Part shown: positions 48,567 through 62,300 of the stretch, in pieces
How positions within the stretch are numbered: position 1 is the first letter of the stretch
Layout: the number at the start of each line of letters is the position of its first letter
NCBI RefSeq assembly: GCF_003987395.1
Contig: NZ_PIPT01000004.1
Span: 124,001 to 188,000, forward strand
Direction: 5' to 3'
DNA length: 64,000 bases
From: Pseudidiomarina aquimaris
Lineage (GTDB): Bacteria; Pseudomonadota; Gammaproteobacteria; Enterobacterales; Alteromonadaceae
Notes under the pieces: model-generated
Seen by the model: the letters and a program-made list of their open reading frames with translations, nothing else
Databases searched by the model: none
Told to the model about the DNA's origin: nothing
Made by a program: the position numbers and the translations under genes

Positions 48567-48687
48567 AAATAACATTAGGGGCTTGGGACGAAATCAGTTA
48601 CTGGCAACACACATTTTCTTGTGATAACAACATTTATTAATGATAATAAAACATACGTTTACGAAAAGAAGCCAAAAGGCGGTCCTA

Positions 48688-49173
48688 ATGCCAACATTTG
48701 ATATAGTTTCAGAGATCGATCGTGTCGAACTAAAAAACGCCGTAGATAATGCCAATCGTGAACTTGATTCGCGCTTTGATTTTCGCGGCGTCGAAGCCCG
48801 TATTGAACTCAATGAGTTCACGGTAACTCTGGCGTCCGAGTCAGACTTCCAAGTGCAGCAGCTGTACGATATTTTCGCTAACCACTGTGCCAAACGAAAC
48901 CTCAGTATGGCGGGTACAGAAACACCGCAAGAGCTCAATCACAGCGGCAAAACCTACAGTACAACTGTCACCTTTAAGCAAGGCATTGACCAGCCTTTAG
49001 CGAAGCAAATCGTTAAACTTGTCAAAGATAGTAAGCTGAAAGTTCAGGCCTCAATTCAAGGTGAGAAAGTCCGTGTATCGGGTAAGAAAAGAGATGATCT
49101 GCAGCAAACCATGGCGTTGTTGCGTGCGTCGGATATCGAATTACCCTTGCAATTTGAGAACTTTCGCGACTAA
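48688..49173 (+). CDS. yajQ: YajQ-family cyclic-di-GMP-binding protein
   Basis: YajQ proteins are small two-domain RNA-recognition-like proteins; some bind cyclic di-GMP and act as transcription co-regulators. I set the start at ATG 48688 (162 residues, [22 protein letters not shown]), with AGGCGG as ribosome site; the upstream in-frame ATG 48640 adds 16 residues outside the family. The signatures [25 protein letters not shown]-like [13 protein letters not shown] and the ending LQFENFRD are all present. The following gene, 43 bases later, encodes a diguanylate cyclase, which makes a ligand-supply link plausible. Confidence 0.94.
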
Positions 49174-49216: not shown

Positions 49217-50494
49217 ATGGACTGGCAACGTTTTCTCGATAAGATGCCCGGCCTCACGTACCAAATCATACGTGAGCCGAGCGGTCATTTTCGCTTCACT
49301 CACATAAGTGCAAATGTCGAGGAGATGCTTGGGTTCTCGCCGCAACTATTGACCGAAGACGCCCGCCCACTCCTCGACGCTATTCACCCAGAAGATGTCG
49401 AAGAAGTCATCGAAGCGAGTATTCTCTCAGCTCAACAACACAGAGAATGGCATCATCCGTTTCGCTTTATCCGCCCTGATGGCAAACAGTTATGGCTTGA
49501 TGCACACGATAGCGGCGAAGAGCTCGATGATGGAACCTTGGTCTGGACCGGTTATATCGTTGAAGCAACCCATCGCAAACAACTCGAACTTGACCTTATT
49601 GCAAGTGAACAACGCTTCCAAACTTTGGTCAAGAATGCCTCGGATATTATTTTCACGTTAGATGCCAATGGCACGATTGGCTATCTTTCGCCTAATTGGC
49701 GACGGATTGTTGGCGATGAACAAAGCGATCCACTTTATCAGTCCTATACGACAGTTGTGCATCAAGACGATTTGGCCAACTGTAATGCGTTTATTCAATC
49801 GCTACTCAACGATGGTCCTCTGGTTGAAGACCTCGAATTCAGGGTACGTCACAATGATGGCGAATGGCACTGGTATACCTGTCGCGCAGCGAAGGTAGAC
49901 GGGCGTGAGAATGATAGCGACTATCTGCTCGGTATTGCTCGCGAAATTACTGAACAGCGGGAACAGCGAGAAAAGATGGCGCGCCTTGCCCGACAAGATA
50001 TGCTCACCAATTTGCCGAACCGAGCCTCCTTTGATGAAGCATTCGAACTAGCGCTGCGTCATTGTGAGCAACGCCAACGTGCGCTCGCTGTTTTATTTAT
50101 CGACCTCGACAACTTTAAGCCCGTCAATGACCAATACGGCCATAGTGTTGGCGACCAGTTGCTGATTCACGTTGCGCGGCGTATCAAAGCGTGTTTGCGT
50201 GATAGTGATTTGGCGTGTCGCATCGGCGGCGATGAATTTTTGGTGTTAACCGAAGCTCACCCTCAGGTGGACAGCGCCAAGTCCACCGCGCTAGCGATTG
50301 CCGAGCGGCTGCGCGATGAACTGGCCAAACCCTTTGCCGTCGAGCATCTGCAGTTAGAAATTTCAGCGAGTATTGGCGTCGCCATTTATCCTACCCATGC
50401 CACCGGCACAGGAGAGCTCGTGCGTTGCGCCGATCGCGCCATGTATGAAGCCAAACTACAGGGGCGTAACTGCGTTGTCTTCAGCCAATGCTGA
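49217..50494 (+). CDS. PAS-PAS-GGDEF diguanylate cyclase
   Basis: A soluble 425-residue protein. It has a first PAS domain (about 8-125; RFTHISANVEEMLGFS), a second PAS domain with PAC (about 130-250; NASDIIFTLDANGTIGYLS) and a GGDEF domain (about 260-425). The active motif is IGGDEFLV with an RDSD inhibitory site five residues before it, so it is likely an active, product-inhibited cyclase. No transmembrane segment is seen, so the signal sensed by the PAS domains is cytoplasmic. It overlaps the convergent permease gene by 14 bases. Confidence 0.92.
   Translation: MDWQRFLDKMPGLTYQIIREPSGHFRFTHISANVEEMLGFSPQLLTEDARPLLDAIHPEDVEEVIEASILSAQQHREWHHPFRFIRPDGKQLWLDAHDSGEELDDGTLVWTGYIVEATHRKQLELDLIASEQRFQTLVKNASDIIFTLDANGTIGYLSPNWRRIVGDEQSDPLYQSYTTVVHQDDLANCNAFIQSLLNDGPLVEDLEFRVRHNDGEWHWYTCRAAKVDGRENDSDYLLGIAREITEQREQREKMARLARQDMLTNLPNRASFDEAFELALRHCEQRQRALAVLFIDLDNFKPVNDQYGHSVGDQLLIHVARRIKACLRDSDLACRIGGDEFLVLTEAHPQVDSAKSTALAIAERLRDELAKPFAVEHLQLEISASIGVAIYPTHATGTGELVRCADRAMYEAKLQGRNCVVFSQC
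50481..50494. terminator. Palindrome spanning both stop codons of the cyclase and permease genes
   Basis: TCAGC (50481-50485) and GCTGA (50490-50494) flank CAAT. The palindrome is exactly the 14-base overlap of the two genes: TGA stop on each strand at its ends. Too short for a strong terminator but notable. Confidence 0.4.
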
Positions 50495-51837: not shown

Positions 51838-53127
51838 ATGAACGAGTATTGGCAAGCCCGACGATCAGGCCCTTCCGCGCAACGCCCCGGCGATCGACGC
51901 ACCCCATGGCAACGTGATCGCGCTCGCGTACTGCATTCTGCTGCCTTTCGGCGTTTGCAATCAAAAACTCAAATCATGAATGTCGGGGAAAATGATTTTT
52001 ACCGTACACGCCTGACGCATTCACTTGAAGCCGCGCAAATCGGCACATCGCTGATCAATCAGTTGCACCATGTCGGCAGTAGCGAAGAGCGCCAACTGTT
52101 ACCCGATCTAAACTTGATGGAAACGCTGTGTCTCGCTCATGACATTGGTCACCCACCCTTTGGCCACGGCGGTGAAACCGCCTTGAACTATAAGATGCTC
52201 GCGTCCGGAGGCTTCGAGGGCAACGGCCAAACTTTCCGTATTGTTGGCAAACTTGAAGCGTATCATGCCGAGCATGGCATGGATCTGACGCGGCGCTCAT
52301 TGTTAGGTTTATTAAAATACCCTGTTCTGATGCCAGATTGGCCGGTCCCTGACACGCTCGCGAACCCCGGAAGCCTAGCTGAGTGGCGACCGGCAAAAGC
52401 GTTGTTTGCCTGTGACGCAGACTTACTCGACTGGGTGCTTGAGCCGCTCAGCGCAGCCGATCGGCAACGCTTTCAAGAAGTTGAGAAACTTGAACGCTCG
52501 CCCTGGCAACGCTCACTCCACAAGAGTTTCGATGCCTCACTCATGGAGCTGGCCGACGACATTGCTTACGGCGTGCATGATCTCGAAGATGCAGTGGTCA
52601 CAGGCACCTTGTCAGAAAACCAGTGGCATACCCATATCGACCATGTGGTGAGTAGTCTTGATGGTGACTTAAGCACGTTAATGCGCCAGCTTGGGACGCA
52701 GCTTTTCTCGCGCGAACACAGCGTACGCAAAGACGCCATAGGTGCCTTAGTGAATATTTTCGTCACCGCCGTGCGTATCAAAGAGGTGTTACCCGACGTC
52801 AGCGAAGAACTAATACGTTTCAATGCTGTGCTGCCTGATCCGCAACGCTTTTTGCTTGATAGCCTTAAAGCAGTGGTATTTGAACATGTCATCAATCAAC
52901 CCTCTATTCAGCAATTACGCTATCGCAGCCAAACCATGCTGCTCAATCTGTTTAGTGCTTTTCACAACGAGCCATTACGGCTTTTACCGCACAACACCCG
53001 AGCGCGTTGGCAAGCAGCCTATGAACAAGAGGGTCAAGCCGGCGCCGACCGTATCCTCTGTGATTATATTGCCGGCATGACCGACGATTACGCCGAACGC
53101 ATGTATAAGAATCTTTTTGTGATCTGA
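51838..53127 (+). CDS. dGTP triphosphohydrolase-like HD protein
   Basis: The enzyme hydrolyses dGTP (or related dNTPs) to deoxynucleoside and triphosphate. The 429-residue protein shows the dGTPase start DRRTPWQRDRARVLHSAAFRRLQSKTQI, the HD-domain histidine in RTRLTHSLEAAQIG, CLAHDIGHPPFGHGGE and the MELADDIAYGVHDLEDAV motif. The metal site is intact. It belongs to the family that includes both housekeeping Dgt-like enzymes and recently described antiphage dGTPases; nothing in its neighbours (permease, iron receptor) marks it as a defence gene. Confidence 0.9.
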   Translation: MNEYWQARRSGPSAQRPGDRRTPWQRDRARVLHSAAFRRLQSKTQIMNVGENDFYRTRLTHSLEAAQIGTSLINQLHHVGSSEERQLLPDLNLMETLCLAHDIGHPPFGHGGETALNYKMLASGGFEGNGQTFRIVGKLEAYHAEHGMDLTRRSLLGLLKYPVLMPDWPVPDTLANPGSLAEWRPAKALFACDADLLDWVLEPLSAADRQRFQEVEKLERSPWQRSLHKSFDASLMELADDIAYGVHDLEDAVVTGTLSENQWHTHIDHVVSSLDGDLSTLMRQLGTQLFSREHSVRKDAIGALVNIFVTAVRIKEVLPDVSEELIRFNAVLPDPQRFLLDSLKAVVFEHVINQPSIQQLRYRSQTMLLNLFSAFHNEPLRLLPHNTRARWQAAYEQEGQAGADRILCDYIAGMTDDYAERMYKNLFVI

Positions 53128-55355: not shown

Positions 55356-55390
55356 GCCGCGCAAGTGAGTTATCGCTTACTCTGCGCGGC
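55356..55390. terminator. Hairpin at the convergent ends of the receptor and LOV-GGDEF-EAL genes
   Basis: GCCGCGCA (55356-55363) pairs with TGCGCGGC (55383-55390); inner bases AGTGAG/CTTACT extend the stem imperfectly. The loop contains the TAA stop of the minus-strand gene. A short TTTCTA/TAGAAA palindrome covers the receptor stop (55335-55349). No T-tract. Confidence 0.6.
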
Positions 55391-58033
55391 TATCCAAGCT
55401 AACACCTCATCAAGTGGCTGTGGGCGACAGAATAAATAGCCCTGTAACAGGTCGCTACCATGCGCAATAACAAATTCACGTTCGCCTTCTGTCTCTACGC
55501 CTTCGGCAATTGTTTTCACGCCAAGCTCTTTGGCTATCATCAATACCCCTCGGGTTATGGCGGAATTCCGTTGCGCATTGTCGACACCGGAAATAAACGT
55601 ACGGTCAATTTTGATGACATCCACAGGGAGTTGATTTAAGTAACTTAAGCTAGCAAAGCCGGTACCGAAATCATCGATAGATATTTTCAGGCCGAGCTCA
55701 CGCAATTTGTGCAAGAGCGCAATCATGTGCGCACTATCGCGTACGAAGACGTTTTCGGTGATCTCGATGACCAACTGTCCCGGTTCAATGGCATAGTCAT
55801 GCACCGTTGCAGCAACGTTTTCAATAAAATCGTCACGGTAAAACTGCAGCGGTGAAAAGTTGACACTTACACTCTCAAGCCCTGCGCCAATCAGTGCTTT
55901 GGTATCACGGCAGGCACGCGCAAAAACCCAATCGGCAATAGCAATAATCTGCCCCGTTGCTTCCGCCAATGGAATAAAATCGTTAGGTGGAATATAACCG
56001 CGCTCAGGATGCTTCCAACGCACCAATGCTTCGACCGCTCGTGGTGTTCCATTACGGTCAACAATCGGTTGGTAAAACAGTTCGAACTGCTCTTTTTGAA
56101 TCGCTTCTTGCAAGTGTGTGCGTAATTCAACTTGCTGCTGCATACCGGCATCAAGATCCGAACTGTACCAGTGCCACGAGCTGCCACCACGACGTTTCGC
56201 TTCATACATGGCAACATCGGCACGCTGAATCAGCTCAACCGGGTAATTAAATTCGCCACTGTTATCGGCAATACCTATTGTTGCTGATAACGATACTTCT
56301 AAGTCATCAAAGCGATAGGGATTGTTAAACTGCGCCAATAACCGCCCCACTAATAAGGTCACCTGCTCGCGCTCCCGCGCACTCGTAACCACCGCGACAA
56401 ACTCATCACCACCAAAGCGCGCCAACAGGTCGTTTGGCCCGATTTGCTGCTGCAAGCGTTCAGCTGTTTCAGTGAGAATACGGTCACCTACTGCATGCCC
56501 AAGACTGTCATTGATCGGCTTGAAGCCGTCTAGGTCGATAAATAAGACGAAAACCTGCGCTGGATTCTCGCCAGTTTGGGCCAATGCACGGGCAAGGTGG
56601 TTTTCCAGCGCATTTCGATTTGGCAGGTGAGTCAGCACATCATGCTGCGCCATAAACGCGAGTGCCTCTTCGCGTTCAACCCGCTCGGTAATATCGCTTT
56701 GCAGACCAATAAAGTGGGTTACTTTTTCGCCGTCGCGCACTGGGGAAATCAGCAAATCGTTCCAAAACGGCGTGCCATCTTTACGGTAATTGCGAATGGT
56801 GACGCGAACCTCGCTGCGGGTGTGCAGCGCATGGCGGATTTTCTCAACTGCCTCAGGATCGGTTTCTGCGCCCTGCAGAAAGCTACAACTACGGCCCAAA
56901 AGTTCGTTGTCTTCGTGATACCCGGTAATTTCTTTGAAAGCTGGGTTCACATAAATAATTGGAAACGCTTTCTGGTTTGCGTCACTAATGATCACGCCAT
57001 TATTGCTGGACTCCACGCTTCGCTCGAAAATTTTCAGTCGCGACTCATTGCGACGTTGCACGGTCATATCTTTGGCAATACCGTGTATCCCGGTAATTTC
57101 ACCGTTGATGATAATTGGCATATTGGTTACATCGAGATCACGCAGCTCACCTTTGCGGTTAAAGATTTTGATCTCGTAACGTTGCGGCTTGCCCGTTTTT
57201 GTTGCCTCAAAGTGCGCAAGGGTGCGCTCGCGGTCAGGCTCTGCCACCACCATTTCATAGTTTTGTCCGAGCACTTCAAGCTCGTCATAACCAATCAAAT
57301 CGGCCCCGGCGCGGTTGAGGCTCATAAAATTACCCTCAAGGTCGAGGGTGAACACCGCTTCAGGGTTATAGCTAAACAGTGAGCGATTATGCTGCTCACT
57401 ACGTTCCCGCTGCACGCGATCATTGTGTTGATCAATCACCAGCGCAACGAGGTCGCGGCTACGCTGCAATAAATCAAGTTCTCGCAAGGTCGGTTCGCGA
57501 CGCTTACGAAAATAAACAGCAAATGTGCCGATTACATTTTTATGGGCGGGTGACAGCACTGGGTAAGACCAACAGGCACGTAATTTAAATTCAGCGATGA
57601 TTTCGCGAAAGGCATCAAAGCGTGCATCGTGGGTCATATCAGAGACAATAATTGGCACTCGGCGGTAGGCAGCCGTGCCGCATGCGCCGACGCCGTCCGC
57701 GATGGGCAAGCCTTGAAGCTTAGCGACAAATTCAGACGGCAGACTCAGAGCACTGGCAGCATTGAGCTCACGCTTGCGATCATCAACCAACATAACTGAG
57801 CACAGGGCGTCATCAATTTGGTCTTCGATCAATGCACAGATATCGGTTAACTTTTCTTCCAGAGACTTATTCTGGGCAAGCGATGCTAAGGTCCGAAATT
57901 TTGCTGCAACTAAGCGCGCCAAACGCACGCGTTCGCGATGCCCTATCCACCAACCAAGCGCAAGCGACGCTAAAGCCAAAAGAAGGCCATAGACTAGTAA
58001 CTGATGTTCCCACGCAAGCTGTTGAAACGCCAA
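55370..58033 (-). CDS. GAF-PAS-LOV-GGDEF-EAL protein, probable blue-light-controlled c-di-GMP enzyme
   Basis: An 887-residue protein with one N-terminal transmembrane helix (about 11-29), a GAF domain (about 40-205; GIGACGTAA-like VGACGTAAYRR), a PAS (about 225-335), a second PAS that is LOV-like (about 345-460), GGDEF (about 470-625, RFGGDEF intact, no RxxD inhibitory site) and EAL (about 640-880, VEALVRWKHP and IDDFGTGFASL intact). The LOV features are GRSCSFLQ with the photo-adduct cysteine at Cys383, NYRKDGTPFWN for the flavin ring and the closing FIGLQSDIT glutamine. LOV proteins bind FMN and sense blue light; two photolyase genes lie 1.4 kb away. Whether it is a cyclase, phosphodiesterase or both is unknown. 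Confidence 0.88.
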   Translation of the reverse strand: MAFQQLAWEHQLLVYGLLLALASLALGWWIGHRERVRLARLVAAKFRTLASLAQNKSLEEKLTDICALIEDQIDDALCSVMLVDDRKRELNAASALSLPSEFVAKLQGLPIADGVGACGTAAYRRVPIIVSDMTHDARFDAFREIIAEFKLRACWSYPVLSPAHKNVIGTFAVYFRKRREPTLRELDLLQRSRDLVALVIDQHNDRVQRERSEQHNRSLFSYNPEAVFTLDLEGNFMSLNRAGADLIGYDELEVLGQNYEMVVAEPDRERTLAHFEATKTGKPQRYEIKIFNRKGELRDLDVTNMPIIINGEITGIHGIAKDMTVQRRNESRLKIFERSVESSNNGVIISDANQKAFPIIYVNPAFKEITGYHEDNELLGRSCSFLQGAETDPEAVEKIRHALHTRSEVRVTIRNYRKDGTPFWNDLLISPVRDGEKVTHFIGLQSDITERVEREEALAFMAQHDVLTHLPNRNALENHLARALAQTGENPAQVFVLFIDLDGFKPINDSLGHAVGDRILTETAERLQQQIGPNDLLARFGGDEFVAVVTSAREREQVTLLVGRLLAQFNNPYRFDDLEVSLSATIGIADNSGEFNYPVELIQRADVAMYEAKRRGGSSWHWYSSDLDAGMQQQVELRTHLQEAIQKEQFELFYQPIVDRNGTPRAVEALVRWKHPERGYIPPNDFIPLAEATGQIIAIADWVFARACRDTKALIGAGLESVSVNFSPLQFYRDDFIENVAATVHDYAIEPGQLVIEITENVFVRDSAHMIALLHKLRELGLKISIDDFGTGFASLSYLNQLPVDVIKIDRTFISGVDNAQRNSAITRGVLMIAKELGVKTIAEGVETEGEREFVIAHGSDLLQGYLFCRPQPLDEVLAWIAAQSKR

Positions 58034-58042
58034 GTGAATTCC

Positions 58043-59284
58043 TTAATTACGTAAGGCTCGATAACGGTAACGATGCCAAGCTAAACCGAGTATCAAGAGC
58101 ACCAACCCAATAAACACAGTGCCAACATGCAACATAACTGCCAGACTGACACAGCCGACAAGACCAAGCAAGGGCCATGTTTTTGCGATAAACCGTTGCT
58201 CACGCTGCACTTTTAGTGCGGCTAAATTAGTAATTGAATAGTAGATAAGTACGGTAAATGCGCTAAACGTCCAAGCTAAGCGAATTCCACCCAAAGCTGC
58301 AATCGCGATCATTACCGCTGCCGTTACCCAGGTCGCCGTGGGCGCTGAAGTCCGCGTGCTATTGAGTGTCGCCCAAGCATGGGGTAAATCGCCCCGCCGT
58401 GCCATGGCCAAAACCACCCGCGAAACGCCCAGTATCAAATTCAAGGTGACACCCAACATCGCCAGGATGGCTCCAATAAAAACAAAATCGCGCGCCAGTC
58501 CAGGTGCCATTAACTGAGTCAAAATAAAGTCTTCGCCAATGAACAGTGGATTGCGCTGCATCAACGCCCATGCCACCGCACCATAGAGTACAGTCACTAC
58601 CACCATTGTGGCGATAATTGCGCGCGGGATTACGCGCCGAGGCTCTTGCACCTCTTCCCCCATGGTGGCGATACGTCCATATCCAGTATAGGCAACAAAC
58701 AACAATCCTGCGGCCGCCAAAAAGTCGCGCAGCGAGAATTCTGCCGAATCACGTACGAAGGCGGCTGGTCGTGGCGCTTGTGCTGACCAAACCACAAAAA
58801 CAATGAGGCTGGCGATGGCCAGACCCACCAACAAAGCATTCACTTGGTTGGAGCGGCGCAAACCGGCCAGTACCAACGCGGTAAGAAACACAATAAAGCC
58901 GATCGCGATACTTGTGACCGCCCATTCTGGCCAACCGAGGTACTGGTTCATCAGCCATGCGCTGGCAAGCGCTGCTGCGGCCGCCGAGGCACTTTTTGCG
59001 GCGATAAAAAACCAGCCGGCTACGAACCCTAGGTCATGATTTAAAAATTTATAGCCGTACTCATAAGTGCCGCCGCTCACTGGGTGCACAGCAGCTAATT
59101 GAGCACTCGATAGGCCATTACAAAGAGCCACAAAAGCAGCCAGCAAGATGGCGTAGAGCAGCCATTCACCGGCCAAAGCATAACCGAAGCCAATACTCAC
59201 AAAGGCGCCCGTTCCAACAATTGAGCCTAAACCTAGAATGACCGCGCCAAACAATGCTGTTGAACGCACCAATTGCTGTGTCAT
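58043..59284 (-). CDS. APC-family amino-acid permease
   Basis: A 413-residue, 12-helix inner-membrane permease of the amino acid-polyamine-organocation superfamily. The substrate-binding unwound helix 1 motif is GLGSIVGTGAFVSIG (about residues 17-31), with the glycine-rich HPVSGGTYEYGYKFL and the FVAYTGYGRIATMGEEVQEPRRVIPRAI stretch of helix 6 and loop 6-7. Substrate cannot be told. It lies 9 bases upstream of the LOV-GGDEF-EAL gene on the same strand and is probably cotranscribed with it; the divergent photolyase gene starts 142 bases beyond. Confidence 0.87.
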   Translation of the reverse strand: MTQQLVRSTALFGAVILGLGSIVGTGAFVSIGFGYALAGEWLLYAILLAAFVALCNGLSSAQLAAVHPVSGGTYEYGYKFLNHDLGFVAGWFFIAAKSASAAAAALASAWLMNQYLGWPEWAVTSIAIGFIVFLTALVLAGLRRSNQVNALLVGLAIASLIVFVVWSAQAPRPAAFVRDSAEFSLRDFLAAAGLLFVAYTGYGRIATMGEEVQEPRRVIPRAIIATMVVVTVLYGAVAWALMQRNPLFIGEDFILTQLMAPGLARDFVFIGAILAMLGVTLNLILGVSRVVLAMARRGDLPHAWATLNSTRTSAPTATWVTAAVMIAIAALGGIRLAWTFSAFTVLIYYSITNLAALKVQREQRFIAKTWPLLGLVGCVSLAVMLHVGTVFIGLVLLILGLAWHRYRYRALRN

Positions 59285-59426: not shown

Positions 59427-60764
59427 ATGTATCGAATCGGTCTCGTTTGGTTACAAGATGATCTGCGGCTTGATGACAATCCGCTCATCCACCGTGCGGC
59501 AGACGAATGTGAGCAGTTGCTTTTCGTCTACTGCGTGAACCCGAAGTGGTTCCAGCATAATCGCTATGGCCTGGTCACCGTTGGCGCTCATCGCTGGCGA
59601 TTTTTACTCGAGTCGCTCACCGAGCTACGCAAACAACTGCAAGCGTTAGGCCAGGATCTGATTGTGAGCTACCAGAGTCCATTGCATACTCTGGCTGAGC
59701 TCTTTGGCCAATTTCCAATCGATGCGCTCTACAGTAGCGAGCATGCGGGGCAGTACGAACGCACTTATCAGCGCTTACTGCAGCAACGCTATCCACTCAT
59801 CAAGCACCAGCAAGTGAACAACAATACGCTGTTTAACAGCAACCAGTTACCTTTTTCACTTGCCGAGTTACCCGATAGTTTCTCGAAGTTTCGCCGCAAA
59901 CTCGAGCAGCAAGATCTGCGTCAAGCTATCGCTACGCCGCTGGCGATGCCGCGACAGTTACCACCACCGCCAAACTTCGTTGGGGCGCTGTTAGAACACC
60001 ATGCGGCGGGTCTGCCAGCGATAACGACCCCGCATCATGCTGAGTTTAACGGCGGAGAGTTGGCGGCTCAGCAACATCTCAACAGCTACTTTGCGAGCAC
60101 TGCCGCCAGTACCTATAAAGCAACGCGCAATGCACTCGATGAATGGTCGGCGTCGACCAAGTTTTCCGCTTGGCTCGCCAACGGCAGTCTCAGCGCGCGA
60201 CGCATTCACGCGCAATTGTGCGCCTATGAAGCGCAACAGGGTGCCAACGAAAGCAGTTATTGGATTTTCTTCGAACTACTCTGGCGCGAGTATTTTCATT
60301 GGTATGCGCGCCACCACCAGCAACGCCTATTCAAGTTTACGGGGATCCAGGATAAACGCCCACAAACGAGTTTTTATTCATCGCGCTGGCAGCAATGGTG
60401 CAGTGGCACCACCGCATACCCCATCGTCAATGCTTGTATGAACCAGCTCAACGCCACTGGTTACATGTCCAATCGAGGCCGCCAGTTAGTCGCGAGTTGC
60501 TTTGTGCATGAACTCGAACTCGACTGGCGTTATGGCGCAGCATTTTTTGAGCAACAACTGATCGACTATGACGTCGCTTCAAACTGGGGCAACTGGCAAT
60601 ATCTCGCTGGGGTGGGTGCTGACCCGCGTGGCCATCGGCGTTTTGACCTCGCCAAGCAAACCCAACAGTACGATCCAAAGGGCGAATTTATCGAACGTTG
60701 GCAAGGTGATGTAGCTGCGCAACCGGAGTGGATTGATGCCGCCGACTGGCCGATACAGAACTAA
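59427..60764 (+). CDS. DASH-type cryptochrome/photolyase
   Basis: A 445-residue flavoprotein of the photolyase/cryptochrome family. The Rossmann-like antenna domain (about 1-135) begins YRIGLVWLQDDLRLDDNPLIHRA; the FAD domain (about 190-440) has STAASTYKATRNALDEWSASTKFSAWLANGSLSARRIHAQL, EYFHWYARHHQQRLF, NACMNQLNATGYMSNRGRQLVASCFVHEL and WRYGAAFFEQQLIDYDVASNWGNWQY, features of the DASH group. DASH enzymes repair cyclobutane dimers in single-stranded DNA and may signal. It is followed after 18 bases by a second photolyase-family gene, so two light-driven enzymes form one unit. Confidence 0.9.
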   Translation: MYRIGLVWLQDDLRLDDNPLIHRAADECEQLLFVYCVNPKWFQHNRYGLVTVGAHRWRFLLESLTELRKQLQALGQDLIVSYQSPLHTLAELFGQFPIDALYSSEHAGQYERTYQRLLQQRYPLIKHQQVNNNTLFNSNQLPFSLAELPDSFSKFRRKLEQQDLRQAIATPLAMPRQLPPPPNFVGALLEHHAAGLPAITTPHHAEFNGGELAAQQHLNSYFASTAASTYKATRNALDEWSASTKFSAWLANGSLSARRIHAQLCAYEAQQGANESSYWIFFELLWREYFHWYARHHQQRLFKFTGIQDKRPQTSFYSSRWQQWCSGTTAYPIVNACMNQLNATGYMSNRGRQLVASCFVHELELDWRYGAAFFEQQLIDYDVASNWGNWQYLAGVGADPRGHRRFDLAKQTQQYDPKGEFIERWQGDVAAQPEWIDAADWPIQN

Positions 60765-60782: not shown

Positions 60783-62300
60783 ATGCAAAATCAGCAGCCG
60801 CTCGCCGTCGTTTGGCTCAAGCGCGACTTGAGGCTGCGCGATCACGAGCCTTTGCAACGTGCCATTGCCAGCGGCCACCCAGTGCTGCTGCTCTACTGCT
60901 TTGAACCCAGCATTGTTGTTGACGAACATTATTCTGAGCGGCATTGGCGCTTTGTGTGGCAGAGCCTCGAAGCGCTGCAGCAGGGCTTAGAAAAGCGCGT
61001 GCCTTTGCCGCTCTTGGTGCGCTACGACGAAGTGCTGGCAAGTCTGCAAGCCATTCAGCAGCAACAACCGATAGCAGCACTCTATAGCCACGAGGAAGTT
61101 GGCTTGGAGCTGACCTATAAGCGTGACCAAGAGGTTCAGCAATGGTGTCGCAGCCATACAATTGCTTGGCATGAGAGCCCGACTGGCGCAGTACAACGTG
61201 GTAAAACCCAACGCCACGACTGGGACAAACAATGGCAAAATGTGATGCGTGCCCCGCTCGCTCGACCAAACTGGGAGCAGGCGATGGCTTGGCAACCCCA
61301 TTGGCTCAGTGAACTCGAACAAAGCGCACAAATACCCACCGCTTGGCGCACTGCCGACGAGCACTTTCAGCAGGGCGGGCTATTCGCAGCGCACGCCACG
61401 ATGGCCAGCTTCTTCTCGACCCGCGGTAAAGATTACCGTTTTGCTATTTCGAAACCAGAGGCCAGTCGCACGGCCTGTTCGCGCCTCTCCGCATATCTCG
61501 CTTGGGGTAACCTTAGTTTGCGGGAAGTCTACCAACAGCTCCTCAAACACTGGCAGCAACCCGGTTGGCGCATGTCGTTGCGGGCGTTTGCGTCGCGTTT
61601 GCACTGGCACTGCCATTTTATCCAGAAGTTTGAAAGCGAACATGAAATGGAATGGCGTCCCGTGAACCGTGGCTATCAATCCTTTCCTTACCGTAACGAC
61701 GAGCAAGTAAGCGAGCACTTACATGCATGGCAACAAGGACTCACTGGGTACCCCTTAGTTGATGCCTGCATGCGCTGTTTGCAAGCGACCGGTTACATTA
61801 ATTTCCGTATGCGCGCCATGCTAGTCAGCTTTCTCTGTCACCATCTCCTCATTGATTGGCGTGAAGGCGTGCACCATTTAGCCCAGCTTTTTCTCGACTT
61901 TGAGCCTGGGATTCACTACCCGCAATTTCAAATGCAAGCTGGCGTCACCGGCACCAACACCATACGCATTTATAATCCGGTCAAGCAGAGCGAAGAACAT
62001 GACCCCGAAGGGAGTTTTATTAAACAATGGTGCCCAGAACTAAGCGAAGTGCCGCCAGAGCTGATCCATAGCCCCTGGCAGTTAAGCATGCTTGAGCAGC
62101 AGCTCTACGGCTGCCACCTTGGCCGCGACTATCCATTCCCGATTGTGGATCTCAAAGCAAGCGGTAAACGGGCGCGCGACTTACTGTGGGGCTGGCGTAA
62201 AGAAGCGCAGGTGCAAGCCGAAAAAAAACGCATTTTAGCGCGTCATGTGCGCCCCAACCAACGCAAGAGCAACTCTGCTAAACGCAAGCGTAGCGAATAA
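60783..62300 (+). CDS. Second photolyase/cryptochrome-family protein
   Basis: The 505-residue protein has an N-terminal antenna domain (about 1-130, [22 protein letters not shown]) and a C-terminal FAD domain (about 200-470). FAD-domain motifs are [99 protein letters not shown] and [31 protein letters not shown]. The FAD domain does not look like the DASH group. Such proteins are annotated as deoxyribodipyrimidine photolyase-related; repair of cyclobutane or (6-4) lesions is likely, but the lesion cannot be told. The C-terminus is Lys/Arg-rich. Confidence 0.88.

What the first reader, a model, noticed from the sequence alone, without database searches (positions are those of the whole stretch)
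55370..58033. Probable blue-light (LOV) GGDEF-EAL protein beside a photolyase pair
The third sensor domain of this 887-residue protein carries GRSCSFLQ with the adduct-forming Cys383, the flavin-binding NYRKDGTPFWN, and the closing glutamine of LOV domains, although two of the eight canonical LOV motif positions differ (the Asn and Arg of GRNCRFLQ are both Ser). Two photolyase/cryptochrome genes lie 1.4 kb away on the opposite strand. Light input to cyclic-di-GMP turnover together with light-driven DNA repair is a coherent theme. The domain facts are seen; the regulatory link is inference.
Basis: partly seen in the sequence, partly recalled or inferred. Interest (0 to 1): 0.7.

Follow-up and report, generated by a model that had tools for sequence, protein, structure and literature searches.

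The report
LOV sensor with eroded flavin-tail contacts
A marine bacterium carries a second-messenger enzyme whose light-sensor domain still has the reactive cysteine but has lost residues that normally grip the tail of the flavin pigment, and related species have lost such residues repeatedly; the nearby DNA-repair genes look like old neighbours rather than partners.

Summary
The minus-strand ORF 55370-58033 (887 aa) reads GAF-PAS-LOV-GGDEF-EAL and carries GRSCSFLQ with Cys383. The third sensor is LOV in sequence and predicted fold (best PDB match MrLOV, TM 0.94); the GGDEF and EAL motifs are intact.

Orthologues in 19 of 26 genomes of the genus mostly keep the flavin-ring contacts and the cysteine: Asn415 19/19, Asn425 18/19, Gln445 16/19, Cys 17/19. 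Contacts to the flavin's ribityl-phosphate tail are poorly kept: Asn 6/19, first Arg 6/19, second Arg 9/19; in 37 Cys-bearing LOVs outside the genus these are 30, 35 and 31. I read it as a probably flavin-binding, possibly light-responsive LOV with relaxed tail recognition. Nothing here shows light response.

The photolyase link is weak: Cry-DASH is next door in 7 of 19 and absent from 5 of 19. Where both occur (14 of 19) they lie within 13.4 kb, but the same neighbourhood exists in three of six examined genomes without the LOV gene.

A paralogue in the same genome and eight relatives keeps the LOV scaffold and cysteine but has six of eight flavin-contact residues replaced, possibly a pocket retooled for another ligand.

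The parts
55370..58033 (-). LOV-GGDEF-EAL gene ('family A'), 887 aa, TTG start
57941..58000 (-). probable N-terminal membrane helix, residues about 12-31
   Evidence: read by eye from the hydrophobic stretch; no predictor run
57431..57868 (-). GAF domain, residues 56-201
   Evidence: Pfam GAF_2 1.1e-12
57038..57403 (-). PAS domain, residues 211-332
   Evidence: TIGR00229, PAS_4
56684..57028 (-). LOV-type PAS domain, residues 336-450
   Evidence: PAS_9 8.9e-34; PDB LOV hits; AlphaFold pLDDT 91.7 and Foldseek best hit MrLOV, TM 0.94
56873..56896 (-). GRSCSFLQ motif, residues 380-387 (Cys383 at 56885-56887)
56183..56650 (-). GGDEF domain, residues 462-617; GGDEF motif intact, no RxxD inhibitory site
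55421..56116 (-). EAL domain, residues 640-871; EAL, N, E, DDFG, K, E and Q motifs intact
58043..59284 (-). amino-acid permease, same strand, 9 bp upstream of the LOV gene (likely one operon)
   Evidence: adjacent in 13 of 19 genomes
59427..60764 (+). cryptochrome DASH, divergent neighbour; no specific link shown
   Evidence: TIGR02765 4.5e-160, over cut-off
60783..62300 (+). second photolyase/cryptochrome-family gene
   Evidence: FAD_binding_7 3.1e-73; no NCBIfam model over cut-off; near the LOV gene in 3 of 19 genomes
51838..53127 (+). dgt-type dGTP triphosphohydrolase; within 2.4 kb of the LOV gene in 19 of 19 genomes
   Evidence: TIGR01353 and NF003701 over cut-off
48640..49173 (+). YajQ-family cyclic di-GMP-binding protein; within 7 kb of the LOV gene in 19 of 19 genomes
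   Evidence: NF003819 over cut-off

Best explanation
The gene encodes a probably membrane-anchored c-di-GMP enzyme (most likely a phosphodiesterase, possibly bifunctional) with a LOV domain as its last sensor. The LOV domain keeps the flavin-ring contacts and the adduct cysteine but not all the residues that hold the flavin's ribityl and phosphate tail. I think it still binds a flavin, with weaker or altered choice among FMN, riboflavin and FAD, forms a cysteinyl adduct under blue light, and passes this to the GGDEF-EAL output. Shown: domain order, motif state, predicted fold class, conservation pattern, intact catalytic motifs. Inferred: flavin binding, tail selectivity, light response, net enzyme direction.
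For: The best PDB sequence hits and all 50 Foldseek rows shown are LOV or LOV-derived. In 19 orthologues the ring contacts and Cys are mostly kept (Asn415 19, Asn425 18, Gln445 16, Gln387 17, Cys383 17), while the Asn382, Arg384 and Arg400 equivalents are kept in 6, 6 and 9. Only 1 of 19 keeps both Arg, 13 keep one, 5 none. Fitch changes on a tree built without the LOV columns: 5, 8 and 6 at these tail sites against a LOV mean of 3.0; 0, 1 and 3 at the ring sites; 2 at Cys. Outside the genus, 37 Cys-bearing domains keep the three tail residues in 30, 35 and 31. The three tail sites are among the 7 of 36 best-conserved LOV positions at which fewer than 60% of family A keep the outside consensus (chance 0.005; grouping chosen after seeing the data). 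Contact roles are from passages of PMC4335406 (DsLOV N71, R73, Q76, R89, N104, N114, Q135). A LOV apoprotein can bind riboflavin with a working photocycle (PMC5314338, passages), and Gln-to-Leu at the closing Gln, seen in 2 of 19, still signals (PMC9098866, passages).
Against: Cys is lost in 2 of 19 (G005, G021), and by entropy Cys, Gln387 and Gln445 are only mid-ranked in family A (49, 49 and 57 of 118; outside the genus 1, 16 and 11, the Cys rank by selection), so photochemistry may not be under strong selection everywhere. Over all eight contact residues together, family A's losses are not significantly enriched (3 of 8, P 0.17). Family A also changed at other well-conserved sites (positions 347, 385, 413). 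No binding or light data exist.
Confidence: 0.52

Rival explanations
1. The LOV domain is decaying: it no longer works as a light sensor and serves as a dark, redox or dimerisation PAS module for the c-di-GMP enzyme.
For: Cys lost in 2 of 19, one of them also losing the Gln387 and Gln445 equivalents; both phosphate arginines gone in 5 of 19; the only other strong LOV-like domain found in the same genome has lost most flavin contacts. In Ralstonia, blue-light effects on transcription were minor and largely independent of the LOV-GGDEF-EAL protein RprR (PMC12802281, passages).
Against: Asn415 never changes and Asn425 once on the tree; Cys is kept in 17 of 19; the LOV domain changes about as fast (3.0 changes per site) as the PAS (3.1), GGDEF (3.0) and EAL (2.8) domains of the same protein. 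Free decay should hit ring contacts as hard as tail contacts.
Confidence: 0.3
2. An ordinary LOV photoreceptor: the two serines are near-neutral variation and light control works as in canonical LOV-GGDEF-EAL proteins.
For: One orthologue (P. halophila, L004/L050) has the full canonical set, so the family is still near the canonical state; some LOVs outside the genus also deviate (for example L189, GRSCGFLQ).
Against: The window-type motif (serine by AGY, then Asn or Ser) was found once in 329 Pseudomonadota genomes, in this genome, against 46 canonical sites in 28 genomes. The patterns cover only part of the codons and the sample held no other member of this genus, two of which (G008, G018) share the motif.
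Confidence: 0.13
3. A light-response module in which this protein and the photolyases work together, as the first reader suggested (not exclusive of the other readings).
For: Permease-LOV and Cry-DASH diverge from one 142-bp stretch; adjacency in 7 of 19 genomes, and in all 14 genomes that have both genes they lie within 13.4 kb, on either side.
Against: Cry-DASH is absent from 5 of 19 genomes with the gene and present in 6 of 7 without it (two of the seven, G001 and G016, are 77% and 86% complete); the Cry-DASH and dgt/yajQ neighbourhood exists without the LOV gene in G014, G016 and G020, 3 of 6 examined.
Confidence: 0.08

Closest known systems
LOV-GGDEF-EAL proteins (for example Mesorhizobium loti WP_140774521.1 in PMC9098866; Ralstonia RprR in PMC12802281)
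   Same: LOV-type PAS with GGDEF and EAL outputs; extra N-terminal sensors in RprR
   Different: Those deviate at a glutamine (closing Gln to Met in M. loti; last motif residue to His in RprR). This one deviates at ribityl/phosphate contacts (Asn and Arg of GXNCRFLQ).
MrLOV histidine-kinase LOV domain (PDB 9vf7) and YtvA (2pr5)
   Same: Top sequence and fold matches
   Different: They carry canonical GRNCRFLQ and GKNCRFLQ (alignments) and different outputs
LOV-activated diguanylate cyclase (PDB 8c05)
   Same: LOV domain feeding a c-di-GMP enzyme; fold match TM 0.86
   Different: A 321-residue chain named a diguanylate cyclase, too short for GAF, PAS and EAL as well (inference)
PpSB1/PpSB2-LOV arginine-cluster variants (PMC13322254, PMC5314338; passages)
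   Same: Natural variation in FMN-phosphate arginines
   Different: There R61 and R66 vary and R54 and R70 stay; here the R54 equivalent is gone

Membership tests
LOV domain (flavin blue-light photoreceptor) | PAS/LOV fold | tested here: met
   AlphaFold pLDDT 91.7; Foldseek rank 1 MrLOV, TM 0.94, rmsd 0.9; best PDB sequence hits are LOV
LOV domain (flavin blue-light photoreceptor) | Adduct-forming cysteine in GXNCRFLQ | tested here: met
   Cys383 present; kept in 17 of 19 orthologues
LOV domain (flavin blue-light photoreceptor) | Full GXNCRFLQ motif | tested here: not met
   GRSCSFLQ: Asn and Arg both Ser
LOV domain (flavin blue-light photoreceptor) | Ring contacts Asn, Asn and closing Gln | tested here: met
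   N415, N425, Q445
LOV domain (flavin blue-light photoreceptor) | Two phosphate-contacting arginines | tested here: not met
   One of two: position 384 is Ser, Arg400 present; roles from PMC4335406 passages
LOV domain (flavin blue-light photoreceptor) | Binds flavin and forms a light adduct | not testable with these tools
   needs purified protein
GGDEF-EAL c-di-GMP enzyme | Catalytic motifs intact | tested here: met
   GGDEF 20/20; EAL, N, E, DDFG, K, E and Q motifs 20/20 in 19 genus members plus G059; RxxD at the I-site place in none of the 19, present in G059 (which residues count as catalytic is recalled)
YtvA-family photoreceptor (NF052652) | Score over curated cut-off | tested here: not met
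   156 bits against cut-off 250; only the LOV part matches
Light-response module with photolyase | Conserved, specific linkage to photolyase genes | tested here: not met
   adjacent in 7 of 19, within 13.4 kb in 14 of 14 that have both, absent in 5 of 19; neighbourhood exists without the gene in 3 of 6

The most novel reading that the evidence does not exclude
In this genus LOV domains fused to c-di-GMP enzymes are being retooled away from FMN in two ways. In the window gene the tail grip is released while ring contacts and cysteine stay, giving a phosphate-blind flavin sensor. In the paralogue at G000:C1:50546-52588, six of eight flavin-contact residues were replaced; in nine genomes four of the new states are fixed (Asp for Arg, His and Asp for the two ring Asn, His for the closing Gln; 9 of 9 each), one is nearly so (Ser in 8, Pro in 1) and one is Ile (6) or Val (3), while the scaffold and the cysteine stayed. 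That pocket may bind a metal or another small ligand, making it a sensor built on a LOV scaffold that does not use flavin light chemistry.
Probability: 0.3. Interest if true: 0.7.

Novelty: new variant of a known kind. Interest (0 to 1): 0.42.

Why it matters
LOV domains are usually recognised by a short motif. This genus offers a natural series of one protein, from fully canonical (P. halophila) through tail-eroded (the window) to cysteine-less, with the output motifs unchanged. It would let one test directly which contacts LOV photochemistry and signalling need, and the paralogue would test how a light-sensor pocket turns into something else. It also cautions against calling light sensing from a cysteine and a neighbouring photolyase.

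Tried and rejected
Photolyase linkage as functional evidence: not accepted, on gene order and co-occurrence, though nearness in all 14 genomes with both genes is left as a point in its favour; I raised that rival from 0.05 to 0.08 for it. BLUF as a second light input: none in this genome, 2 of 26 in the genus. Canonical GXNCRFLQ (Arg as CGN) elsewhere in this genome: none. Search for the paralogue's H/D/H pocket in other genera: 0 of 28 domains newly examined, out of 48 out-of-genus matches listed, and 0 of the 50 (the two sets overlap). Neighbours of the paralogue (YceI-like, GNAT, BCCT transporter, fasciclin, citrate/sulphate transporter) gave no ligand clue. Papers: 'Pseudidiomarina' with 'blue light' found 0; 'LOV domain', 'GGDEF-EAL', 'Idiomarina' found 2, seen as listing only; in the listings I saw no title or abstract start about loss of LOV tail contacts in nature; I claim no absence from print beyond these searches. 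PMC4844311 and PMC12202551 were seen as passages and gave background only. The external LOV control used 50 of 60 out-of-genus matches listed (10 without a fetched locus dropped); 37 carry Cys and the 13 without Cys were left out of the counts that say so. The external rows are an uneven sample and not independent, and Cys is fixed in them by selection. The hypergeometric tests treat sites as exchangeable. The tree warns of long branches (A_G059, B_G015, B_G007, B_G009). The pattern control covers AGY serine only and sampled no other genus member. Of the seven genus genomes without family A, G009, G010, G014, G020 and G025 are 99% complete; G001 and G016 are 77% and 86%.
Full report
What is there. 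The finding's coordinates hold one gene on the minus strand, 58033 to 55370, 887 codons with a TTG start and an AAGGA upstream of it. Pfam places GAF, PAS (two stretches), GGDEF and EAL over cut-off; a hydrophobic N-terminal stretch looks like a membrane helix (read by eye). The third sensor domain is of LOV type: phmmer against PDB sequences gives a LOV domain first (1.8e-37) and YtvA, aureochromes and phototropins among the 60 of 161 hits shown, and the AlphaFold model (pLDDT 91.7, alignment of 65 sequences) matches MrLOV at TM 0.94, rmsd 0.9; all 50 Foldseek rows shown are LOV or LOV-derived. The fold says nothing about whether a flavin is bound. The output half looks able to work: the GGDEF motif and the usual EAL catalytic motifs are intact in 19 genus members and the outgroup G059 (20 of 20); an RxxD at the inhibitory-site place is missing in all 19 and present in G059 (the meaning of these motifs is recalled).

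Where it is. The best named relatives are Pseudidiomarina (89% identical in P. homiensis). The held genus has 26 genomes; 19 (this one included) have an orthologue, the least alike at 51-52% identity, here called family A.

The motif. The window has GRSCSFLQ. The 19 orthologues read GRSCSFLQ (3 genomes), GRSCNFLQ (2), GRNCRFLQ (2), GRNCRILQ (2), GRSCSMLQ (2) and one each of GRSCSLLQ, GHGCGFLQ, GREFNFLQ, GRSCRILQ, GKSCNLLQ, GRSCALLQ, GDNCDKLR, GRNMRLLH. Cys is kept in 17 of 19. The paper on DsLOV (PMC4335406, passages) lists the hydrogen-bond contacts N71, R73, Q76, N104, N114, Q135 and says that two arginines, R73 and R89, contact the phosphate. Counting from the Cys (C72 there, C383 here) and by the alignment gives Asn/Ser382, Arg/Ser384, Gln387, Arg400, Asn415, Asn425 and Gln445 here. 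Which part of the flavin each contacts is from that paper, from PMC5314338 (passages) and partly recalled.

Tail against ring. In family A, the tail residues Asn382, Arg384 and Arg400 are kept in 6, 6 and 9 of 19; ring residues Asn415, Asn425 and Gln445 in 19, 18 and 16; Gln387 in 17. Only 1 of 19 keeps both arginines, 13 keep one, 5 none; only one, matching P. halophila, has all eight contact residues canonical (identity of that genome inferred from equal contig length). On a tree built from the other domains, so that the LOV columns could not shape it, the fewest changes are 5, 8 and 6 at the tail sites, 0, 1 and 3 at the ring sites and 2 at Cys; the LOV mean is 3.0. Outside the genus, among 37 Cys-bearing LOV domains from Gammaproteobacteria, the tail residues are kept in 30 (six more have Asp), 35 and 31, and the ring residues in 37, 35 and 35. 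By entropy, Arg384 falls from rank 11 to 111 of 118, Arg400 from 30 to 107, Asn382 from 27 to 87, while Asn415 stays at 1; but Asn425 (11 to 32), Gln387 (16 to 49) and Gln445 (11 to 57) slip too, and Cys stands at 49 in family A. A DNA-pattern control in 329 Pseudomonadota genomes found the window-type motif once, here, and canonical motifs at 46 sites in 28 genomes, none of them this genome (codon coverage is partial and no other genus member was in the sample). Against this: the enrichment over all eight contacts taken together is not significant for family A (3 of 8, P 0.17), and it reaches 0.005 only for the three tail sites, a grouping made after seeing the data.

How it probably works. 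I think the domain still holds a flavin by its ring, with altered tail recognition, and can form an adduct. A LOV apoprotein can take riboflavin and FAD and still photocycle (PMC5314338, passages). Loss of the closing Gln by Leu, as in two orthologues, left light signalling largely intact in test systems, while His abolished it in two of them (PMC9098866, passages); the same paper's section 9 finds natural LOVs without this Gln, some with His. G021, which has His there, has also lost Cys. Light response, flavin identity and the direction of the c-di-GMP change remain inference. The main rival is that the domain is turning into a dark PAS module.

Neighbours. Cry-DASH (TIGR02765, over cut-off) starts 1.4 kb from the LOV gene's start, but an amino-acid permease on the LOV gene's strand, 9 bp from it, stands between. 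Cry-DASH is next door in 7 of 19 genomes, about 7 kb away on the other side in 4 and about 13 kb away in 3; 5 of 19 lack it. So in all 14 genomes with both genes they lie within 13.4 kb, which favours some link. But 6 of 7 genomes without the LOV gene have Cry-DASH, and in G014, G016 and G020, which lack the LOV gene, Cry-DASH lies about 5-9 kb from dgt or yajQ as well; in G009, G025 and G001 the fetched stretches showed neither dgt nor yajQ. The nearness is most simply old gene order. The second photolyase-family gene is near in 3 of 19 and the permease next door in 13 of 19. The constant neighbours are a dGTP triphosphohydrolase (dgt), within 2.4 kb in 19 of 19, and a YajQ-family c-di-GMP-binding protein, within 7 kb in 19 of 19. 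A c-di-GMP enzyme beside a c-di-GMP-binding protein is a theme at least as good as light, though dgt and yajQ also sit together without the LOV gene in G014 and G016.

A paralogue worth a look. Family B (1160-1193 aa; 13 of 26 genomes; G000:C1:50546-52588 here) has PAS, LOV-like PAS, GGDEF and EAL too (two members scanned). In G007, G009 and G014 its LOV domain is canonical at the motif and ring contacts; G015 has GKSCALLQ with the second Arg also changed. In the other nine genomes, one clade at full support, the Asn is Ser (8) or Pro (1), the Arg Asp (9), the Gln Ile (6) or Val (3), the two ring Asn His (9) and Asp (9), and the closing Gln His (9), while the Cys is kept in 9 of 9 and the second Arg in 8 of 9. 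Of the 36 best-conserved LOV positions, seven have fewer than 60% of this clade at the outside consensus, and six of those are among the eight flavin contacts (P 9.5e-5, sites taken as exchangeable). The model is still LOV-like (pLDDT 92.1; best match MrLOV). I found the same pocket in 0 of 28 out-of-genus domains newly examined and 0 of 50. A change so confined to the pocket, and then held, suggests a new ligand rather than decay; a metal or other small molecule is a guess. Structures of an engineered LOV protein with His at the closing Gln exist (6ywr, title), so His alone need not exclude flavin.

Verdict. Observation confirmed; LOV membership met in fold, cysteine and ring contacts but not in the full motif or both arginines; photolyase theme weak; a new variant of a known kind.

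Noticed in passing
G000:C1:50546-52588 (L123; L241:7535-11038 minus): Second LOV-derived GGDEF-EAL protein with six of eight flavin-contact residues replaced (C kept; Asp, Ile/Val, His, Asp, His) in nine genomes while the rest of the LOV scaffold is kept.
   Followed up: partly
window 48640-49173 and 51838-53127 (+): A YajQ-family c-di-GMP-binding protein and a dGTP triphosphohydrolase (also over the cut-off of models named anti-phage dGTPase) stay near the LOV-GGDEF-EAL gene in 19 of 19 genomes; in 9 of 19 the dgt match ends 1 bp from the LOV gene's match.
   Followed up: partly
L136, L137, L138, L139 (G012, G017, G019, G024): A third, shorter LOV-like GGDEF-EAL family with GQSLHFLQ or GKSLHFLQ: the cysteine is Leu and the closing Gln is Leu in all four; the G019 copy has a stop inside.
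   Followed up: no
G015:C1:599025-600488 (L141): A related gene whose match starts in the second half of the LOV domain and has a stop inside.
   Followed up: no
window 49217-50494 (+): A PAS-GGDEF protein without EAL lies 5 kb away, beside yajQ; a relative at 48% identity or more is in the fetched neighbourhood in 7 of 18 other genomes.
   Followed up: no
window 60783-62300 (+): Photolyase/cryptochrome-family protein below every NCBIfam cut-off listed (best 171 bits against 506); found at 53% identity or more in 9 of 26 genus genomes and beside Cry-DASH in 8 of the 9.
   Followed up: partly
G023:C198:5213-6153: Cry-DASH copy in two pieces with a TGA stop.
   Followed up: no
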